Shown here: positions 10,868-30,720 of the stretch, one piece after another
Numbering within the stretch: the first letter of the stretch is position 1
Layout: every line of letters starts with the position of its first letter
IMG/VR virus record: IMGVR_UViG_3300043449_000494
Span: 1 to 30,990 of that record
Length of the DNA: 30,990 bases
DNA from: a virus
Direction: 5' to 3' (one strand)
Made by a program: the position numbers and the translations under genes
Notes under the pieces: model-generated
Seen by the model: only the letters and a program-made list of their open reading frames with translations
Database searches by the model: none
Told to the model about the DNA's origin: nothing

Positions 10868-11042
10868 CTATTTCCCCTATTAGTTCGGCACGCTCACGCA
10901 ACATCCGCAACGTCGTGTAACGCTGATGCAAACGTATAATGACCGTAGACCGCCGAGCGTTCTTGCGCTCGTCTTCCAAGAGATCCAATACCTCTTGTTC
11001 CGTGTAGTCCGTCAGGACTTCATTCAATTCACGCCAGTTCAT
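10809..11042 (-). CDS. Small conserved phage protein, unknown function
   Basis: 77 residues, mostly helical and charged (VLTDYTEQEVLDLLEDER, then RLHQRYTTLRMLRERAEL). The body looks like a small conserved helical protein. The last ~15 residues (RSTTTSQRNYRRARG) overlap the start of the next gene and look unconstrained. It overlaps the helicase stop by 14 bases and the DUF6378-like start by 59 bases, so it is translationally packed in the operon. I do not know its function. Confidence 0.6.
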   Translation of the reverse strand: MNWRELNEVLTDYTEQEVLDLLEDERKNARRSTVIIRLHQRYTTLRMLRERAELIGEIDESARSTTTSQRNYRRARG

Positions 11043-12309
11043 TTAAGGCTAACTCCGCTAACGAACGCTTGTCGTGCAGACTTGCGTAGATGCGCTCGTC
11101 AATAGTCTTATTACAAATCATAACGTAACACCACACTTCTTTTGTCTGGCCGCTACGGTGCAAGCGTCCGATGGTTTGCTCGTAAAGTTCGAGCGACCAC
11201 GGCAGCGATAGAAAGATAATTTTGTTGCCGCCGAACTGTAAGTTCAGCCCATGACCTGCGCTCTTTGGATGCAGGGCCAGAAGCTCCAGTTCACCTTTGT
11301 TCCACTTGTCAACGACATTCTCGTCGTCCATAGTAGAGAGTTGTGGATATTGTCGTTTTAATTCTGCTAATTCTTCTTTATAATTGTAGACAATGATTGT
11401 GTTGGCGTGTTGGTTCTCTTCGAGCACTTCTTTTAATAGATCAAACTTATGCGAAGTTAGCCACTCCGCGCCGTTAGCGCCGTAAATGAAGCCGCCCGCG
11501 AGCTGTTGTAGTTTCTGAGTGACAACAGCCGCTGTCGGCGCTGTGATGGTCTGTCCTAACTCAAGGACAAAATCCTTTTTCATTTTATTGTATGGCGCTA
11601 GATCCATGTCGCAGCGCAACTCGACGACGTTTAGCGGCGGTAGCTTATCCTTGTATTCGCCAGCCTCTAACACATACGTCGCTGGTTTGATTACGCCCAT
11701 AACGTTGTTCAGCGCGCCGGGCAGCGGTTCCCACTGTTGATACTCGCGGTTAATGCAGTAAAAATACTGTTGCAGAAACGCGCCTTTGCTGCGGCCCAAC
11801 AATTTCTGGTCGATCACTTTGCATTGGCCGAACACGTCTTCAAGTCCGTTAGACGTGAACGATCCCGTCAAGCCCCAACGAATGTGAAACTTGTCAAGTA
11901 TTTTCAGTAAGTATTTAAAGCGTTTTCCACTAGGATTTTTTAGTCGCGTAAGCTCATCAAAAACCACACCGTCAAAACCAGTGGGATCAATGCTAGGTAT
12001 ATTGTCATAGTTCGTCACCACAATGTCAGCGTCGGAATCAAAAGCGGCTTTGCGTTGCGCTGGCGTCCCAACGGCTATGCTTATGTCAAACTCAGGACAC
12101 CACTTTTGACCTTCTTGCTTCCAAACATCAGTGCAAACTCGTTTGGGTGCAAGCACTAACCATCGGCCAACATGGCCGTTTGCTAACATTTCTGTCATTG
12201 CAGTTAACGTGATCGCAGTCTTACCAGCGCCGACGGGCGCTAAGATCATGGCGCGGTCACGACAGAAGAGGAAGTCGGCAGCGTCGTGTTGATACGGTCG
12301 TAAGTCCAT
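11029..12309 (-). CDS. SNF2-type DEAD-like helicase
   Basis: 426 residues, an SF2 ATPase. PYQHDAADFL at the N-terminus is the Q-like motif. Walker A is APVGAGKTA (Lys30). Walker B is VVFDELTRLKN (Asp118, Glu119). Motif III is LTGS (~147-150), and the C-terminal RecA-like lobe carries NLQFGGNKIIFL and the arginine-finger motif QTIGRLHRSGQ. This compact SNF2-like form is common in phage replication modules and probably remodels or unwinds DNA during replication or recombination. It starts within the end of the VRR-NUC gene, a 64-base overlap; since the Q motif begins at residue 5, a later start is unlikely. Confidence 0.9.
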   Translation of the reverse strand: MDLRPYQHDAADFLFCRDRAMILAPVGAGKTAITLTAMTEMLANGHVGRWLVLAPKRVCTDVWKQEGQKWCPEFDISIAVGTPAQRKAAFDSDADIVVTNYDNIPSIDPTGFDGVVFDELTRLKNPSGKRFKYLLKILDKFHIRWGLTGSFTSNGLEDVFGQCKVIDQKLLGRSKGAFLQQYFYCINREYQQWEPLPGALNNVMGVIKPATYVLEAGEYKDKLPPLNVVELRCDMDLAPYNKMKKDFVLELGQTITAPTAAVVTQKLQQLAGGFIYGANGAEWLTSHKFDLLKEVLEENQHANTIIVYNYKEELAELKRQYPQLSTMDDENVVDKWNKGELELLALHPKSAGHGLNLQFGGNKIIFLSLPWSLELYEQTIGRLHRSGQTKEVWCYVMICNKTIDERIYASLHDKRSLAELALNELA

Positions 12310-24487: not shown

Positions 24488-25033
24488 ATGGCTTTCTATG
24501 CAGATGGTGGCTTTAGTTCCATCCCCCATGAGCCGCGCGATGTTCGGGCAACTGAGGCGCGGCTAGAGAAAATATATGAAGCGGCCAAACGTGGCCTGAA
24601 GGGCGACGCGCTGGCGTTAGCTTGCGACATGCTGCCGACTGAGTATCGGCGCTTGATTCAGCTTGACCCGATTGCGGAGTATGCGGAGATTAAAGGACGC
24701 GCTGAAGGTGAGATGGAAATGGCTGACGTGTTGCGTCGCGCGGCTATGGCTGGCGACACTAAAGCGGCCCTAGATGTCTTGAAGCATGTCCATAACTGGG
24801 TTGCCAAACAAGCTATGAGCGTTGAGGTCAACCAGACCATATCTATTACGGCGGCGCTGCAAGAGGCGCAGCAACGAGTCATCGAAGGGCAAATCATAGA
24901 TGCAAACGACGGTATATTCGCCGGAGGAAGAGCAGCGCTTAATGGCGACGCTGTGGAACCCCGCGCTGAAGAACGACCCGCTGGCCTTCGTGAGACTAGC
25001 CTTTCCTTGGAAGAAGCCGAATACGCCACTTGA
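24488..25033 (+). CDS. Terminase small subunit
   Basis: 181 residues from ATG 24488 (MAFYADGG). The N-terminal helical part DVRATEARLEKIYEAAKRGL then KGDALALACDMLPTEYRRLI looks like the DNA-binding HTH unit. A charged central helix (AEIKGRAEGEMEMADVLRRA) follows, then ALDVLKHVHNWVAKQ and a beta-like MSVEVNQTISITAALQ tail, as in oligomeric small terminases. It recognises phage DNA and loads the large subunit. An ATG 24 codons upstream (24416) would add a hydrophobic Phe-rich stretch that does not fit the family. No ribosome binding site precedes 24488; TATAAA at 24475-24480 would put transcription start at or near the ATG. Confidence 0.8.
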   Translation: MAFYADGGFSSIPHEPRDVRATEARLEKIYEAAKRGLKGDALALACDMLPTEYRRLIQLDPIAEYAEIKGRAEGEMEMADVLRRAAMAGDTKAALDVLKHVHNWVAKQAMSVEVNQTISITAALQEAQQRVIEGQIIDANDGIFAGGRAALNGDAVEPRAEERPAGLRETSLSLEEAEYAT

Positions 25034-26426
25034 ACACTTCGAAGGCCCGCGCAAATGGCAGCGCGAGGTGCTCGTTGAACTGCGCGATCACATCCACGCG
25101 AACAACGGACGCATAGACTTCGAGACGTTACGGCTGGCGGTATCATCTGGGCGCGGAATTGGTAAGTCTGCCCTCGTAAGCTGGCTGACGATCTGGATGC
25201 TGACGACACGGATCGGCTCGACGACCATCGTGTCCGCAAATAGCGAGGCGCAGCTTCGTAGCGTTACATGGGCTGAGATCACCAAGTGGCTGAGTATGTC
25301 GATACACAGTCACTGGTTCGAGGTCAGCGCAACCAGAGTCTTACCGGCGAAGTGGATAGCGGAGTTAGTAGAAAAAGATCTGAAACTCGGAACGCGCTAT
25401 TGGGGCGTAGAAGGGCGGTTGTGGAGTGCAGAGAATCCTGACGCATATGCTGGCGTGCATAACTTCGCGGGTGTCATGCTGGTATTCGATGAGGCGAGCG
25501 GAATTGATGATAGTATCTGGTCAGTTGCAGCGGGCTTTTTTACGGAAAATACCCCTAATCGCTTTTGGTTGTGCTTCAGCAACCCCCGTCGTAACTCTGG
25601 TTACTTTTATGAGTGTTTTAACTCCAAGCGAGACTTTTGGCGAAATAAAATTGTCGATGCCCGCTCCGTCGAAGGCACGGATAAGGCCGTATACCAACAG
25701 ATCATTGACGAGTATGGCCCCGATTCAAGCGCAGCCCACGTCGAGGTCTACGGTCAGTTCCCCAACGCCAGCGACGACCAGTTCATCGGAAACGCGCTGG
25801 TTGACGAGGCAATGGAACGTCCCGCTATATCCGACCAGTCCGCGCCCATCGTGGTCGGAGTGGATCCAGCACGCTTTGGTGCCGACGCCACCGTCATCGC
25901 CATAAGGCAAGGACGCGATATATTAAGCATCCGACGACACCGCGGCGACGACACGATGGAAGTCGTGGGGCGCGTGATCGACGTGATCGAAGAGTATAAG
26001 CCTGCGCTGGTCGTGATCGACGAGGGCGGACTCGGCGCGGGTGTGGTGGATCGCTTGAAAGAGCAACGCTACAAGGTGCGCGGTGTGAACTTCGGCAACA
26101 AAAGCAGTAAGCCCATGATGTATGGCAACAAGCGCGCTGAGATGTGGGGCGCGATGAAGGACTGGCTGAAGGATGCGAGCATACCGAAGGACAGGTATCT
26201 GAAGTCAGACCTGATCGGGCCTATGATGAAGCCGGACTCAAAGGGGACGATATTCTTAGAGTCAAAGAAGGACATGAAGTCGAGAGGGCTAGCATCACCT
26301 GACGCGGCGGACGCTATCGCAGTAACCTTTGCATTTCCTGTCGCTAGACGCGAGCAACGAGTAGACAACACACGCCGCGTCAGCTATGGTCAAGGCTCCG
26401 CATCGTCTGGATGGATGGCCTCATAA
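24900..26426 (+). CDS. Terminase large subunit
   Basis: 508 residues. Walker A SSGRGIGKSA (Lys89), Walker B VMLVFDEASG (Asp197, Glu198) and coupling-type segment LCFSNPRRNSGYF form the packaging ATPase. The nuclease part has VVGVDPARFGADATV (Asp322), LVVIDEGGLGAGVVDRL (Asp374) and ASPDAADAIAV (Asp468, Asp471), the three acidic sites of the RNase H-like fold. It cuts concatemers and drives DNA into the head. The start at 24900 lies inside the small-subunit gene, a 134-base overlap; a second ATG at 24942 with GGAGGAAG upstream is an alternative. It overlaps the next gene by TAATG. Confidence 0.93.
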   Translation: MQTTVYSPEEEQRLMATLWNPALKNDPLAFVRLAFPWKKPNTPLEHFEGPRKWQREVLVELRDHIHANNGRIDFETLRLAVSSGRGIGKSALVSWLTIWMLTTRIGSTTIVSANSEAQLRSVTWAEITKWLSMSIHSHWFEVSATRVLPAKWIAELVEKDLKLGTRYWGVEGRLWSAENPDAYAGVHNFAGVMLVFDEASGIDDSIWSVAAGFFTENTPNRFWLCFSNPRRNSGYFYECFNSKRDFWRNKIVDARSVEGTDKAVYQQIIDEYGPDSSAAHVEVYGQFPNASDDQFIGNALVDEAMERPAISDQSAPIVVGVDPARFGADATVIAIRQGRDILSIRRHRGDDTMEVVGRVIDVIEEYKPALVVIDEGGLGAGVVDRLKEQRYKVRGVNFGNKSSKPMMYGNKRAEMWGAMKDWLKDASIPKDRYLKSDLIGPMMKPDSKGTIFLESKKDMKSRGLASPDAADAIAVTFAFPVARREQRVDNTRRVSYGQGSASSGWMAS

Positions 26427-26674
26427 TGGTATCGTTATCGGTAGGTCGTGGCGAGAAGCTATCGACAAAAGCGGGCGCTGGTCTGACGGCTAAAGGTCGT
26501 GCTAAGTATAATGCTGCGACAGGCAGTAAGCTGAAGCCACCGGCACCTAATCCTAAAACCAAAGCAGAGGCTGGACGGAAGGCTAGTTTTTGTGCTAGGA
26601 TGAAACCTATCGCAGAAAAGAGTGAGAAGGGCAGCCGTGCAAGAGCATCAATGCGTCGATGGAATTGTTCATGA
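26426..26674 (+). CDS. DUF6321-like small basic protein
   Basis: 82 residues from the ATG overlapping the terminase stop. SVGRGEKLSTKAGAGLTAKG, RAKYNAATGSKLKPPAPNPK, AGRKASFCARM and a terminal RRWNCS match, from memory, the DUF6321 pattern common beside phage terminase or portal genes. Highly basic, so DNA binding or a virion-internal role is plausible but unproven. The linker after CARM is short and Glu/Lys-rich. Its 3' end overlaps the HNH gene start. Confidence 0.75.
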   Translation: MVSLSVGRGEKLSTKAGAGLTAKGRAKYNAATGSKLKPPAPNPKTKAEAGRKASFCARMKPIAEKSEKGSRARASMRRWNCS

Positions 26675-27095
26675 GGAATGGCGCGACATTCGTGGTTACG
26701 AAGGGCGCTATCAAGTAAGTAATTTGGGCCGCGTAAAATCGTTGGCTCGTGATAGACGAGGCAAAAATAACGGGTTAGTCCCTATGCCGGAACGCATAAT
26801 GAGACTGACACCAAAGAAAGATAACGGTCGAACCAAACCATATGTTGAAGTGCGGTTTAGGAACGGCGGCTTAAGAACAGAAAGGTGTAAAGCGTTTTTG
26901 GTTCACAGGTTGGTAGCGGACGCATTTATAAAACCGTTAGAACTTGGCGAGCAAGTAGATCATAAAAACGGTTTACATAGTGACAACAGGGTTGAGAATC
27001 TTAGGGTTTTAACTTGGCTAGATCATGCTAAACTGCATCCTAGTTTACACAGGCCCAGAGATCCAGCTACAGGAAGATTACAAAGTGGCAAGTAA
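26637..27095 (+). CDS. HNH homing-type endonuclease with NUMOD4 motif
   Basis: 152 residues from GTG 26637, which has AGAAGGG a few bases upstream; GTG 26622 is an alternative. The N-terminal EEWRDIRGYEGRYQVSNLGR then VKSL is a NUMOD4 DNA-binding motif. The C-terminal HRLVADAFIKP, EQVDHKNGLHSDNRVENLRV is an HNH_3 nuclease core (VDHKNG with His, and following Asn). Free-standing homing endonucleases of this kind move into phage genomes. Here it lies between two small basic genes and overlaps both. It could also help cos cleavage next to the terminase, but the NUMOD4 form favours mobility. Confidence 0.85.
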   Translation: MQEHQCVDGIVHEEWRDIRGYEGRYQVSNLGRVKSLARDRRGKNNGLVPMPERIMRLTPKKDNGRTKPYVEVRFRNGGLRTERCKAFLVHRLVADAFIKPLELGEQVDHKNGLHSDNRVENLRVLTWLDHAKLHPSLHRPRDPATGRLQSGK

Positions 27096-27240: not shown

Positions 27241-27386
27241 TGCCGTTAGTTAAGTCATCATCTAAGAACGCCATGCGTAAGAACATCAAGGCTGAAATGA
27301 AGGCTGGCAAGCCACAGAAGCAAGCCGTTGCAATCGCGTATTCAGTTAAGCGTGCGGCCTCTAAGAAGGGCAAGTCGTGTAAATAA
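27240..27386 (+). CDS. Small basic protein, DUF6496-like
   Basis: 48 residues: MPLVKSSSKNAMRKNIKAEM, KAGKPQKQAVAIAYSVKRAA, SKKGKSCK. This matches, from memory, a widespread phage family (DUF6496) with NIKAEMxAGKPQKQAVAIA. Very basic and helical. It sits between two coupled genes (TGATG upstream, TAATG downstream). Function unknown; virion or DNA association is a guess. Confidence 0.75.
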   Translation: MPLVKSSSKNAMRKNIKAEMKAGKPQKQAVAIAYSVKRAASKKGKSCK

Positions 27387-28591
27387 TGCCCGTCAATGCG
27401 CTTGCTCCTGAACCGCGTAATGCTATGTTGCGGCCATACGAGCCGACATTACGGGAGCGTATTGCAGCGTATCTTATGGGCGACACCCGCCCGTCACCAG
27501 AGCGGCGTCAGTTTGCAACCGGCGCGGCTGACATATTAAGTTATCTTCCTTTTACCGGCAATATTATACAAGGCGAAGAAGCTGCGCGGAGAGGCGACAC
27601 TAAAGGCGCTATAATGGCCGCGCTACCTATTCCTGGCGCGGCTAAAATACCCGCACAACAAGCCGTTCAACGAGGCATCCGCGCGTTTCATGGCTCCCCT
27701 CATGACTTTCCACAATTTGACATTAGTAAAATTGGCACTGGCGAAGGCAATCAAGTATATGGTCATGGGCTATATTTTGCGGGGCATGAACCAGTAGCGT
27801 TAAAATACCGCGAAGCGTTAAGTTTTCCTAAGTATAAAGGCTTAAATGTCCAGCAAGTTCAGCCAGAATTAGGACTTAACGAAGTTCAATCAGACGTTAT
27901 ATTTGATGTAGCGCAACGCATAAAAAACCAAAATATTTCGCCTTCTGAAGCTGTTAACAAAACGCAAGAAGAATTGTTAAGACACGCTAAATCAGCGGTG
28001 GAACAATTTAAATCGGCTGCGCCAAATGAACGTTCTTGGCGGGCAAAAACAGCTTTAGAAGCTATTGAGCAGGCTAAACTTGCGCGCGGTATAACACCTG
28101 AAGATTTCGCGCCGCATAAAGGGCATATGTATGAGGTAAATATTAACGCCCAACCTGAACAGTTTCTTAACTGGGAGTTGCCATTAGAAGAACAGCCCGC
28201 AGGCAAGTTAATGCTCGAAAAAATGGATCCTAAACTGCGCGTCGAATTAGAAGATATGTTAGACGAAAAAGGACTTAGCCCCGATCTACCTGTTTATAGT
28301 GGCCGCGAAGTTCATTCTCTGTTACAAAGATTTGCAGACGAAGGCGAATTATTACCAGGCTCCACCGAAGTAGGCGCACCCGCCGTTGCTGAATATATGC
28401 GGTCTTTAGGTATCCCTGGAGTCCGCTATCAAGACGCCGGTTCTCGCGGAGCGGCTGAAAAAACGTATAATTACGTCGTTAATGATGATAGATTGGTTGA
28501 AGTCATGCGTAAATACGGTCTAATGGGGCCGATTGGAGCGGGTATTGCCGCTAAAATATTAGCCCGCCAAGACGCGCGGCAGGAGATGTAA
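27386..28591 (+). CDS. ADP-ribosyltransferase-like protein (polyvalent-protein ART type)
   Basis: 401 residues. The N-terminal ~95 residues are helical and ejection-protein-like (LRERIAAYLMGDTRPSPERR; ADILSYLPFTGNIIQGEEAA). From residue 100, RAFHGSPHDFPQFDISKIGT, GHGLYFAGHEPVALKYRE (His102, Tyr130), GHMYEVNINAQPEQFLNWEL and the end motif GIPGVRYQDAGSRG then YNYVVNDDRLVEVMRKYG follow the ART-PolyVal pattern. Such enzymes transfer ADP-ribose from NAD to proteins. Placed between terminase and portal genes, it may be packaged and ejected to modify host targets, as T4 Alt is. The DNA is more AT-rich than neighbours in the middle. No target can be inferred. Confidence 0.75.
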   Translation: MPVNALAPEPRNAMLRPYEPTLRERIAAYLMGDTRPSPERRQFATGAADILSYLPFTGNIIQGEEAARRGDTKGAIMAALPIPGAAKIPAQQAVQRGIRAFHGSPHDFPQFDISKIGTGEGNQVYGHGLYFAGHEPVALKYREALSFPKYKGLNVQQVQPELGLNEVQSDVIFDVAQRIKNQNISPSEAVNKTQEELLRHAKSAVEQFKSAAPNERSWRAKTALEAIEQAKLARGITPEDFAPHKGHMYEVNINAQPEQFLNWELPLEEQPAGKLMLEKMDPKLRVELEDMLDEKGLSPDLPVYSGREVHSLLQRFADEGELLPGSTEVGAPAVAEYMRSLGIPGVRYQDAGSRGAAEKTYNYVVNDDRLVEVMRKYGLMGPIGAGIAAKILARQDARQEM

Positions 28592-30720
28592 TGGCTGCAA
28601 GTGATGTAGAAGGCGCAGGCAAAGTATCTGACAACCCAGACGGCGACCGTCTGGCGACGATGCGTCACCGCTTTACGGTGGCAAGCACAGCCTATTCTGA
28701 CTCCCGCGAAGATGAGCTGGACGACTTGCGTTTTATGGCAGGCTCTCCAGATAATGCTTGGCAATGGCCCGCTGACGTGTTGGCGACCAGAGGCGCGGTG
28801 CAGGGTCAGACGATCAACGCGCGTCCCTGCCTGACGATTAACAAGCTGCCACAGCATGTCAGGTTAGTAACCAATGAACAGCGACAAAACAGACCCTCCG
28901 GCAAGGTCATCCCAGCGGACGATAAAGCCGACATTGCGGTCGCAGAAGTCTTTCAAGGTATCGTTAGACACATCGAATACTTATCCGACGCGGACGTTGC
29001 ATATGATACCGCGTGCGACAATCAAGTTACCTACGGAGAAGGTTATATCCGAATCCTTACGGAATATTGCCGCGAAGATTCGTTTGACCAAGACCTAAAG
29101 ATCGGTCGCGTCCGTAACAGCTTTAGCGTTTATATGGATCCTATGATCCACGACCCATGCGGATCAGACGCAGAATGGTGCTTCATAACCGAAGACATCC
29201 CGAAAGAAGAATATGAGCGGCTTTATCCAGACGCGCTGCCGATCTCTGTAATGATGTCGCAAGGCGTTGGCGATCAGTCTCTTAGCATGTGGATGAGCCA
29301 GGAAACCGTCCGTATTGCTGAGTATTTTTACATTGAGCATCAAAAGAAAAAGCTCAACCTCTACCCCGATAATATAACCGCTTTTGAGGGTTCGCCACAG
29401 GACAAGCAGCTCAAGGCTATGTTCGGCAAACCGCTGAAGTCGCGCACAAGCGAGCATCGTCAGGTCAAGTGGCTGAAGACGAACGGCTTTGAAGTGCTCG
29501 AAGAACGCGATTGGGCGGGTAAATGGATCCCTGTCATCCGCGTGGTCGGTAACGAGTTTGAAGTAGACGGACAGCTCTATATCAGCGGTCTAGTGCGTAA
29601 CGCGAAAGACGCGCAGCGCATGTATAATTATTGGGTCAGCCAGGAAGCAGAGATGCTGGCGCTGGCTCCAAAAGCGCCATTTATCGGATATGGAGGTCAG
29701 TTTGAAGGATACGAAACAAACTGGAAAACCGCCAATACGAACAACTGGCCTTACCTCGAAGTCAACCCAGACGTCACCGACGGCAATGGATCTCCTTTGC
29801 CATTACCTGAACGCGCGCAGCCGCCTATGGCGCAAACCGGCCTTATACAGGCAAAAGTGGGCGCTGGGGAAGATATCAAAGCCACCACGGGTCAATACGA
29901 CAGTTCAATTGGTGCGACCAGTAACGAGAGGACGGGTCGTGCGATTCTGGCTCGGCAAAACCAAGGCGATACATCCACATATCACTACGTGGACAATCTC
30001 GCGCGAGCGGTTCGATATACGACAAGACAGCTAGTCGATCTGATCCCTAAGATCTACGACACGGAGCGCGTGGCGCGCATTGTCGGGTTAGACGGCGAAG
30101 TGGATATGGTGAAAATCAATCCAAATCAGCCGGAGCCAGTCCGCGTTATCAAGGATCCGATCACAGGTCTGGATATTGAAAAGATCTACAACCCGTCAAT
30201 TGGTATTTACGACGTGGTTGTTACCACTGGCCCAAGCTACGCAACCAAGCGCCAAGAAGCGATGGAAGCGATGCAGATGATCTTGCAGACCAACCCGCAG
30301 CTCTGGGGCGTAGCAGGCGATCTGTTCATTAAAAACATGGATTGGCCTGGGGCGCAGGAGATGGCGGCGCGGTTTGCTAAGACGCTCGATCCGAAAGTTC
30401 TGGATAACACAGATGAGTCGCCAGAAGCGCAGATGATGCGCGCTCAGATGAACGACATGGCGAATCAGATGGAACAGACTGCGGCTCTGGTTCAGCAACT
30501 GCAACAGTCATATGATATGCAAAAACTGGCTATTGACGAGCAAAATACGCAGATCAAGGCGTATGATGCAGAGACAAAACGTCTTCAAGCCATGCAAAGC
30601 GGCCTGTCACCTGAACAGATACAAGACATTGTGATGGGAACGGTTGCGGCGGCAATGGACACGGGTGACATTGTGCCTAGATCGACGCCTATGCAACCTC
30701 AATTACCGGGATTAGAATAA
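28591..30720 (+). CDS. Portal protein, P22-type
   Basis: 709 residues, close to the ~725 of P22 gp1. The N-terminus RHRFTVASTAYSDSREDELD, DLRFMAGSPDNAWQWP, and CLTINKLPQHVRLVTNEQRQ are typical of the family; VYMDPMIHDPCGSDAEWCFI follows. A central wing and the stem segment GAGEDIKATTGQYDSSIGAT then NERTGRAILARQNQGDTSTY are also typical. The C-terminal part is helical and Gln/Met-rich (MANQMEQTAALVQQLQQ), like the barrel of P22 portal. Forms the dodecameric vertex ring through which DNA enters and leaves. ATG overlaps the preceding stop. Confidence 0.93.
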   Translation: MAASDVEGAGKVSDNPDGDRLATMRHRFTVASTAYSDSREDELDDLRFMAGSPDNAWQWPADVLATRGAVQGQTINARPCLTINKLPQHVRLVTNEQRQNRPSGKVIPADDKADIAVAEVFQGIVRHIEYLSDADVAYDTACDNQVTYGEGYIRILTEYCREDSFDQDLKIGRVRNSFSVYMDPMIHDPCGSDAEWCFITEDIPKEEYERLYPDALPISVMMSQGVGDQSLSMWMSQETVRIAEYFYIEHQKKKLNLYPDNITAFEGSPQDKQLKAMFGKPLKSRTSEHRQVKWLKTNGFEVLEERDWAGKWIPVIRVVGNEFEVDGQLYISGLVRNAKDAQRMYNYWVSQEAEMLALAPKAPFIGYGGQFEGYETNWKTANTNNWPYLEVNPDVTDGNGSPLPLPERAQPPMAQTGLIQAKVGAGEDIKATTGQYDSSIGATSNERTGRAILARQNQGDTSTYHYVDNLARAVRYTTRQLVDLIPKIYDTERVARIVGLDGEVDMVKINPNQPEPVRVIKDPITGLDIEKIYNPSIGIYDVVVTTGPSYATKRQEAMEAMQMILQTNPQLWGVAGDLFIKNMDWPGAQEMAARFAKTLDPKVLDNTDESPEAQMMRAQMNDMANQMEQTAALVQQLQQSYDMQKLAIDEQNTQIKAYDAETKRLQAMQSGLSPEQIQDIVMGTVAAAMDTGDIVPRSTPMQPQLPGLE

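What the first reader, a model, noticed from the sequence alone, without database searches (positions are those of the whole stretch)
27386..28591. ADP-ribosyltransferase-like gene between terminase and portal, a candidate ejected effector
The sequence shows the FHGSPHDF, GHGLYFA and GIPGVRYQDAGSRG...YNYVV motifs of polyvalent-protein ARTs, joined to an N-terminal ~95 residues that look like an internal virion protein. It is co-transcribed with packaging/portal genes, not early genes. That suggests it is carried in the head and injected, like T4 Alt, so it could modify host RNA polymerase, translation or defence proteins at once on entry. The fusion of an ejection-like leader to this ART type in a P22-like phage may be undescribed.
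Basis: partly seen in the sequence, partly recalled or inferred. Interest (0 to 1): 0.72.

Follow-up and report, generated by a model that had tools for sequence, protein, structure and literature searches.

The report
Swappable ADP-ribosyltransferase gene beside phage portal
A short-tailed phage carries, between its DNA-packaging genes, an enzyme gene predicted to tag host molecules with ADP-ribose; related phages keep the same front piece but swap or delete the enzyme, as expected of an interchangeable weapon that is probably carried in the virus particle.

Summary
The gene is real: 27386-28591, 401 aa, overlapping by one base (TAATG) both the small ORF before it and the P22-type portal gene after it. 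Residues ~97-383 are a divergent H-Y-D ADP-ribosyltransferase (ART) of the polyvalent-protein kind: triad H102/Y130/D350 conserved in relatives, confident AlphaFold model, best solved match a domain of the cyanophage A4 pre-ejectosome (Z 10.8), then diphtheria toxin and tankyrases. Pfam ART-PolyVal alone is below cut-off. ARTs beside terminase/portal, predicted to be packaged and injected, are already published (Iyer 2017, 2022). New here: the first ~92 residues are a separate, slowly evolving leader. In sister phages the same leader, at the same TerL-portal site, carries an unrelated 182-aa domain (11 loci, one lineage) or is reduced to a 40-aa in-frame deletion stub (2 contigs); a phage with 98.7% identical portal has an HNH-like ORF instead of the whole gene. 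A second phage group also keeps leader and tail while the core varies. So this is an accessory, swappable effector slot coupled to the portal. Virion carriage is likely but inferred; target unknown. No proteomic or enzymatic test was possible.

The parts
27386..28591 (+). ART effector gene, 401 aa
   Evidence: ORF; homologues; purifying selection
27386..27661 (+). constant leader, residues 1-92
   Evidence: 82-85% aa identity over res 1-85 in loci (apart from the 94% identical nearest relative) whose C-terminal part is ART or an unrelated domain; DNA homology between an ART and an alternative allele ends at about residue 92; pN 0.13 against 0.34 in the ART part at similar pS (window vs L047)
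27674..28534 (+). ART domain, residues 97-383, with a helical insert at about 146-243
   Evidence: AlphaFold model: 24 of 28 ten-residue blocks in 101-380 have mean pLDDT of 85 or more, but 111-130 only 72-73; VIA-align ART matches
27689..27691 (+). H102, first triad residue
   Evidence: H in 129 of 131 aligned copies (biased upward by the search pattern)
27773..27775 (+). Y130, second triad residue
   Evidence: Y in 131 of 131
28121..28150 (+). GHMYEVNINA strand, subfamily signature
   Evidence: alignment; parts of it were also search patterns
28433..28435 (+). D350, predicted third triad residue
   Evidence: D in 124 of 127; the H-Y-D assignment follows PMC5512222
28526..28588 (+). conserved C-terminal tail, residues 381-401
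   Evidence: its last part (KILARQ...) is retained in the 40-aa deletion stub of L182/L183
27240..27386 (+). 48-aa phrog_2423 ORF; stop overlaps the ART start (TAATG)
   Evidence: present with ART, alternative and stub alleles
28591..30720 (+). P22-type portal gene; start overlaps the ART stop (TAATG)
   Evidence: PF16510 2e-172
24900..26426 (+). terminase large subunit
   Evidence: phrog_2 1.1e-43
26411..26674 (+). DUF6321 small protein
   Evidence: PF19846 6.2e-16
26622..27095 (+). HNH endonuclease ORF (NUMOD4 + HNH_3)

Best explanation
An accessory H-Y-D ADP-ribosyltransferase effector sitting in an exchangeable slot whose reading frame overlaps the portal start. The ~92-residue leader is a constant module that most likely docks the protein to the assembling portal/procapsid, so that it is packaged and ejected with the DNA; the ART core then uses NAD+ to modify a host (probably protein) target at the start of infection. 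Other phages put a different effector behind the same leader, or lose it. Shown here: the gene, its ART fold (predicted) and triad, the overlap with the portal gene, leader conservation, effector replacement and natural deletion. Inferred: leader as docking signal, virion carriage, enzymatic activity, target.
For: ART: model pLDDT 81 overall, 24 of 28 blocks in 101-380 at 85 or more; VIA-align ranks 1-25 are ART-superfamily chains as I read their titles, led by 9k3a_B, cyanophage A4 pre-ejectosome, Z 10.8 over 165 residues; that chain is A-4L ORF27 and by eye carries LYHGT and GTYFS at the matching place. Triad H 129/131, Y 131/131, D 124/127. Portal: TAATG on both sides of the gene; a portal within 20 nt in 27 of 57 representatives in which one was recognised, of 107 in all. 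Same domain in large proteins with LPD23 and phage lysozyme (L023), PBECR5, Nudix and GNAT, and in vir555_00054, two genes after an annotated internal virion protein. Slot: of 25 leader loci 13 carry the ART, 11 another domain, 1 is cut by the contig end; DNA 87.6% identical from TerL to leader residue ~92, no match in the core, 84% again from the portal start (L047 vs L163); stubs in 2 contigs; an HNH-like ORF in its place in MW202483.1. Second group: leader 104/104, core 129/207, tail 25/26 (L013 vs L016).
Against: No virion proteomics: a phiGT1 mass-spectrometry table exists (PMC10386132, Table S3) but could not be read. The leader resembles no known virion protein, so its docking role is a guess, and MW202483.1 and OR003940.1 do without it. 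The alternative domain of group 1 could not be identified or folded and all 11 loci are one lineage. 50 of 107 representatives show no recognised same-strand portal in the DNA held. Plain Foldseek against PDB gave no hit at E<=0.001. The sequence link to the A4 domain is weak (hhalign probability 1.9, E 0.026), Pfam finds no ART in A4 ORF27, and the structural match has rmsd 5.9.
Confidence: 0.6

Rival explanations
1. A late-made but unpackaged modifier: an accessory (moron-like) ART produced with the head genes that acts inside the already infected cell, for example on RNA polymerase, translation or superinfecting phages, as T4 ModA/ModB do.
For: Late-gene position alone does not show packaging; accessory status is shown; no known packaging signal is recognised.
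Against: Recurrent direct abutment to the portal in different phages, the same domain inside virion-type giant proteins, and a constant leader kept while the effector changes fit carriage better than free expression.
Confidence: 0.2
2. A polymorphic toxin or toxin-antitoxin module used by lysogens or in phage-phage competition.
For: Constant N-terminus with variable C-terminus is the polymorphic-toxin layout; H-Y-D ARTs are shared with polymorphic toxins (PMC5512222 passages, PMC9503650 section 3.7.1).
Against: No allele-specific partner gene in the loci laid out: the phrog_2423 ORF accompanies the ART, alternative and stub alleles alike, and the ART-bearing L177 has the same run of ORF sizes after the portal as the alternative-bearing L163. 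Exact-pattern scans gave at least 585 viral loci but 7 in 84,980 bacterial and archaeal species genomes, all in contigs titled MAG; tblastn found 7 of 72,556 plasmid records. No MuF or secretion domain.
Confidence: 0.1
3. The ART modifies or protects the phage's own packaging machinery (portal, terminase).
For: Iyer et al. 2022 raise as an alternative that such ARTs counter immune processes aimed at the packaging apparatus.
Against: The gene is missing while the portal stays 98.7% identical, so the portal does not need it for assembly.
Confidence: 0.05
4. A degenerate ART without catalysis, kept as a structural or binding protein.
For: The position that by eye corresponds to the Glu of PARP-type ARTs is N362 (N in 125/126).
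Against: H, Y and D of the H-Y-D clade are retained and the ART part is under purifying selection (pN 0.34 against pS 0.72 vs L047).
Confidence: 0.05

Closest known systems
ART-PolyVal (PF18760) / Tox-ART-HYD2-like ARTs of phage polyvalent proteins (Iyer et al. 2017, PMC5512222)
   Same: H-Y-D triad, ART fold, phages with terminase-portal packaging; close relatives just pass the Pfam cut-off (L086 32.3 bits; L026 31.5 bits).
   Different: The window protein itself scores below the cut-off; a solo gene with one ART plus leader, not a 2-15 domain protein; helical insert and GHMYEVNINA signature.
ARTs encoded next to terminase/portal, predicted head-packaged (Iyer et al. 2022, PMC9503650)
   Same: Same genomic context and same proposed fate.
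   Different: The section read (3.7.1) speaks of fusion to MuF or portal and of vicinity; it does not mention a short constant leader with exchangeable effectors at one locus.
MuF polymorphic toxins of temperate phages (PMC5576092, PMC12226406; starts of abstracts in search listings)
   Same: Constant N-terminal part, variable C-terminal effector, phage head protein.
   Different: No MuF domain found; ~92-aa leader without a known fold; no immunity gene seen.
Phage T4 Alt
   Same: Works-like model: ART injected from the head.
   Different: R-S-E triad and a different ART clade (PMC5512222 passages).
Cyanophage A4 pre-ejectosome protein (9k3a chain B, A-4L ORF27)
   Same: Best structural match to the ART domain among the chains compared; carried in the virion as a pre-ejectosome part (PDB title).
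   Different: ART-like region inside a 1717-aa protein; sequence similarity barely detectable; its paper (PNAS 2025, seen only as a reference-list entry) was not held.

Membership tests
ART superfamily, H-Y-D clade | ART fold | tested here: met
   predicted model: diphtheria toxin Z 8.5, tankyrase 8.3, MbcT 7.4, RES toxins 7.2, A4 pre-ejectosome 10.8
ART superfamily, H-Y-D clade | H (strand 1), Y (strand 2), D (strand 5) | tested here: met
   H102 in E98-104, Y130 in E129-132, D350 just after E345-349 (strands not renumbered to the published scheme); conservation
ART superfamily, H-Y-D clade | NAD-dependent ADP-ribosyl transfer | not testable with these tools
   needs biochemistry
Pfam ART-PolyVal PF18760 | score over the curated cut-off of 31.2 bits | tested here: not met
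   17.2 bits; relatives L026 31.5 and L086 32.3 pass
Polyvalent protein (Iyer 2017) | 2-15 domains in one polypeptide | tested here: not met
   only one recognised domain; relatives in large proteins do meet it
MuF polymorphic toxin | MuF domain | tested here: not met
   Pfam at E<=1 lists only ART-PolyVal
MuF polymorphic toxin | constant N-terminus, variable C-terminus | tested here: met
MuF polymorphic toxin | cognate immunity gene | tested here: inconclusive
   no allele-specific neighbour in the loci laid out; distant immunity genes not excluded
Head-packaged, injected effector (T4 Alt type) | present in the virion and ejected | not testable with these tools
   only context evidence
T4 Alt family | R-S-E triad | tested here: not met
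   H-Y-D instead

The most novel reading that the evidence does not exclude
P22-like podoviruses have a delivery slot at the terminase-portal junction: a ~90-100 aa leader, made in step with the portal, is a packaging-and-ejection signal for whatever enzyme is fused behind it. Different phages load it with an ART, a short ART variant, an unidentified domain, perhaps a GNAT or a zincin, or nothing, so the leader would be a portable tag for loading proteins into podovirus heads.
Probability: 0.4. Interest if true: 0.75.

Novelty: new variant of a known kind. Interest (0 to 1): 0.55.

Why it matters
If the leader is a packaging and ejection signal, podoviruses have a modular way to deliver enzymes with their DNA, and comparing slot contents becomes a route to injected anti-host proteins. 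Natural gain, swap and loss in closely related phages (one pair has 98.7% identical portals, with and without the gene) give ready-made comparisons for what the ART does. It would also give a short tag for loading proteins into podovirus heads.

Tried and rejected
Foldseek against PDB with the full model: no hit at E<=0.001; the ART assignment rests on VIA-align, BFVD relatives, motifs and the family alignment. VIA-align looked only at 983 chains that Foldseek ranked highest. A profile search of PDB sequences found nothing; single-sequence search gave two irrelevant hits at E 0.25-0.37. NCBIfam and PADLOC: nothing relevant. hhalign against the A4 domain aligned the two motifs but with probability 1.9. 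The second effector (L126 C-terminal 182 aa): no PDB sequence match at E<=1, no phage match, single-sequence AlphaFold failed (pLDDT 39.6); its one distant hit, L161, lies in an ORF that reads by eye like a helicase with a short shared stretch and was discarded. phiGT1 leader search: no relatives. L012-type leader: 4 loci, of which L198 was not resolved. The GNAT reading of L192-L195 is weak (PF00583 E 2.5e-4, 14.8 bits, cut-off 20.7), and those genes are not next to a recognised portal in the DNA held. The HNH reading of the MW202483.1 ORF is also below cut-off (PF01844 E 1.3e-4, 18.2 bits, cut-off 21.4). M15/VanY peptidase matches in L023 are below cut-off. The zincin reading of L199 (HEIQH) is by eye only. 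One query (labelled GNAT192) was cut out of frame; its hits are ignored. In one search L103 was scored as having no adjacent portal because of ORF tiling; one search corrects it. Promoter and terminator scans gave counts no better than shuffles, so co-transcription is inferred from gene order and overlaps.

Rows dropped: the upstream-neighbour scan used 94 of 97 neighbours (two over 1,200 aa and L042 left out). Conservation counts come from loci found with patterns that include the H102 and E250 motifs (and, N362), so those columns are biased upward.

Full report
The gene. ORF 27386-28591 (+) encodes 401 aa in a 30,990-base IMG/VR virus record. It lies after TerL (24900-26426), DUF6321, an HNH ORF and two small ORFs, and before a P22-type portal (PF16510 2e-172). 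Its start overlaps the stop of the 48-aa phrog_2423 ORF and its stop overlaps the portal start, both as TAATG, so translation is probably coupled. Promoter and terminator scans gave nothing above shuffles. A sequence match of 1177-2958 to needle-head / stabilization proteins of solved phages also fits a short-tailed phage.

It is an ART. Pfam ART-PolyVal alone is weak (17.2 bits, cut-off 31.2), but relatives L026 (31.5) and L086 (32.3) just pass, while L010, L013 and L041 (27.9-30.0) do not. AlphaFold on a 60-sequence alignment gives mean pLDDT 81; 24 of 28 ten-residue blocks in 101-380 are at 85 or more, but residues 111-130 only 72-73. In VIA-align, which looked at 983 chains ranked by Foldseek, ranks 1-25 are ART-superfamily chains as I read their titles: cyanophage A4 pre-ejectosome 9k3a_B (Z 10.8, rmsd 5.9, 165 residues), diphtheria toxin (8.5), tankyrases (8.3), MbcT (7.4), RES toxins (7.2); 6kyf, titled an anti-CRISPR protein, scores 5.7. 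Foldseek's own PDB list had no hit at E<=0.001; in BFVD, 31 hits reach E<=0.001 and several are named ART-PolyVal-like. The predicted triad is H102, Y130, D350, as described for polyvalent ARTs (H in strand 1, Y in strand 2, D in strand 5; PMC5512222, passages). In an alignment of 140 rows: H 129/131, Y 131/131, D 124/127, R354 123/123; H is biased by the search patterns, while Y, D and R were in no pattern.

Who has it. tblastn finds 4 of 50,697 phage records and 7 of 72,556 plasmid records, four annotated LPD23 domain-containing. In 84,980 species genomes the same kind of scan confirmed 7 loci, all in contigs titled MAG. Of 109 complete ART-bearing ORFs, 67 are at most 450 aa, 24 are 451-800 and 18 longer. 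Large forms add LPD23 and Phage_lysozyme2 (L023), PBECR5 (L083), Nudix and GNAT (L043) or a second, more typical ART-PolyVal stretch (L027, L028, L036). In vir555 the 1974-aa protein with the ART comes two genes after an annotated internal virion protein.

Portal neighbourhood. 107 representatives (90% identity) of 122 loci were used. PHROG scans of the next ORF of at least 150 aa: downstream (96 scanned) 11 hit phrog_156 portal, 5 phrog_1216 portal, 6 phrog_3927 scaffold; upstream (94 of 97) 16 phrog_1216, 6 phrog_156, 12 phrog_2 terminase. By my own clustering a same-strand portal lies within 20 nt in 27 representatives (13 downstream, 14 upstream) of 57 with a recognised portal; in the other 50 none was recognised in the DNA held. 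For a phage of some 60 genes chance adjacency would be about 3% (my estimate, no call). This agrees with Iyer et al. 2022, who place about 44% of the phage ARTs they recovered in contexts suggesting head packaging (PMC9503650, section 3.7.1 read).

Leader and core evolve differently. Window against L047: residues 1-95 are 81% identical (pN 0.13, pS 0.69), the rest 53% (pN 0.34, pS 0.72); the portal is 81% (Fisher p 1.5e-6 on amino-acid identities). So the leader is constrained as protein, at a portal-like pace. Among 55 complete representatives of at most 450 aa the segment before the ART has a median of 99 aa, 48 lie within 70-170, and 0 of 51 tested has a hydrophobic stretch of transmembrane strength. 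Outside close relatives the leaders do not align well.

The slot. A scan with the window leader found 25 viral loci: 13 continue into the ART, 11 into an unrelated domain (267-aa ORF), 1 is cut by the contig end. The 11 carry an identical 182-aa domain, so they are one lineage. TerL, phrog_2423, cassette, portal and phrog_858 stand in the same order around both types wherever the contig is long enough; DUF6321 and the next small ORF are labelled in L163, L164, L166, L167, L174, L137 and in L003, L047, L175, L178, L045, but not in L002, L046, L177, L182, L183. L047 (ART) and L163 (other domain) are 87.6% identical in DNA from TerL to about leader residue 92, share no match over the core, and match again at 84% from the portal start. 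L182 and L183 have a 40-aa ORF in which leader residues 1-28 run in frame into the ART's C-terminal tail: a deletion of the effector; leader and tail of ART alleles share only GCGGC there. MW202483.1, a complete circular record whose portal is 98.7% identical to the window's, matches the window DNA at 93.0% over 286 bases just before the gene (84.9% over the TerL region) and 93.7% from window base 28578 on, but has a 190-aa ORF with a weak HNH match (below cut-off) in place of leader and ART; the ART protein is not found anywhere in that record or in OR003940.1 (the same kind of search matched 11 of 11 known carriers). OR003940.1 (portal 70%) has an 82-aa ORF annotated GroES in the slot.

Is it general? 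A second leader (L013 type) gave 14 loci: 5 with this ART, 3 with a short ART variant, 4 with a GNAT-like domain, 1 with a long different protein, 1 cut off. Between L013 and L016 the leader is 104/104 identical and the tail 25/26, the core 129/207. The GNAT match is below cut-off and those genes are not beside a recognised portal in the DNA held, so at the portal group 2 shows swapping mainly through its ART variants. A third (L012 type) appears with the ART (L012, L200) and with an HExxH-bearing protein (L199; by eye), one further locus being unresolved; the motif PVDHDPF (searched with some variation) occurs in 5 ORFs of the loci then held, each time within 25 residues of an end of these cargo proteins, four with and one without the ART. 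A further leader, from phiGT1, gave no relatives.

How it most likely works. Made with the portal, docked by its leader to the procapsid, ejected with the DNA, then ADP-ribosylating a host target. Shown: gene, predicted fold, triad, overlap with the portal gene, exchange, natural loss. Inferred: docking, packaging, ejection, catalysis, target. A fold match to a domain in a solved pre-ejectosome is the nearest thing to physical evidence; that chain is A-4L ORF27 and by eye carries YHGT and GTYFS motifs, but the sequence link is weak, Pfam finds no ART in it, and its paper was not held. Mass-spectrometry data for phiGT1, which has an ART of this family between portal and scaffold, are published (PMC10386132; passages, figure legends and sections 3.2 and 4.1 read), but the table is not readable here and the text read does not mention this protein.

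Novelty. ARTs beside portals and their proposed injection are known. I found no description of a constant leader with exchangeable effectors at the terminase-portal junction in the paper searches (open-licence PMC only; listings, with passages of PMC5512222 and passages plus one section of PMC9503650 read). I call it a new variant of a known kind.

Noticed in passing
L010:1805-4834; L088:7656-11166: In two relatives the P22-like portal is split into two ORFs at the same place (about phiGT1 portal residues 151-180); in L010 the ART gene lies between the two portal halves.
   Followed up: partly
L012, L053, L057, L199, L200: Short motif PVDHDPF occurs near the N- or C-terminus of four ART proteins and one non-ART cargo protein and in no other ORF of the loci then held; possible docking tag.
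   Followed up: partly
L124:20116-25269 (Anabaena phage A-4L ORF27, PDB 9k3a chain B): The solved A4 pre-ejectosome protein seems to contain an ART-like domain near residues 1405-1610 (VIA match; YHGT and GTYFS motifs); Pfam does not see it, and I could not check whether the authors named it.
   Followed up: partly
L182:1920-2042; L183:6001-6123: 40-aa in-frame remnant of leader plus ART tail, a natural effector deletion; ART alleles share GCGGC at the two ends.
   Followed up: yes
L201:8439-9011: HNH-like ORF (PF01844 18.2 bits, below cut-off) occupies the slot in a phage with 98.7% identical portal; it is not annotated in the record.
   Followed up: yes
L202:6678-6926: An 82-aa ORF annotated co-chaperonin GroES occupies the slot in phage DSL-LC05.
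   Followed up: no
window 11029-12309 (-): A minus-strand 426-aa SNF2-type helicase ORF.
   Followed up: no
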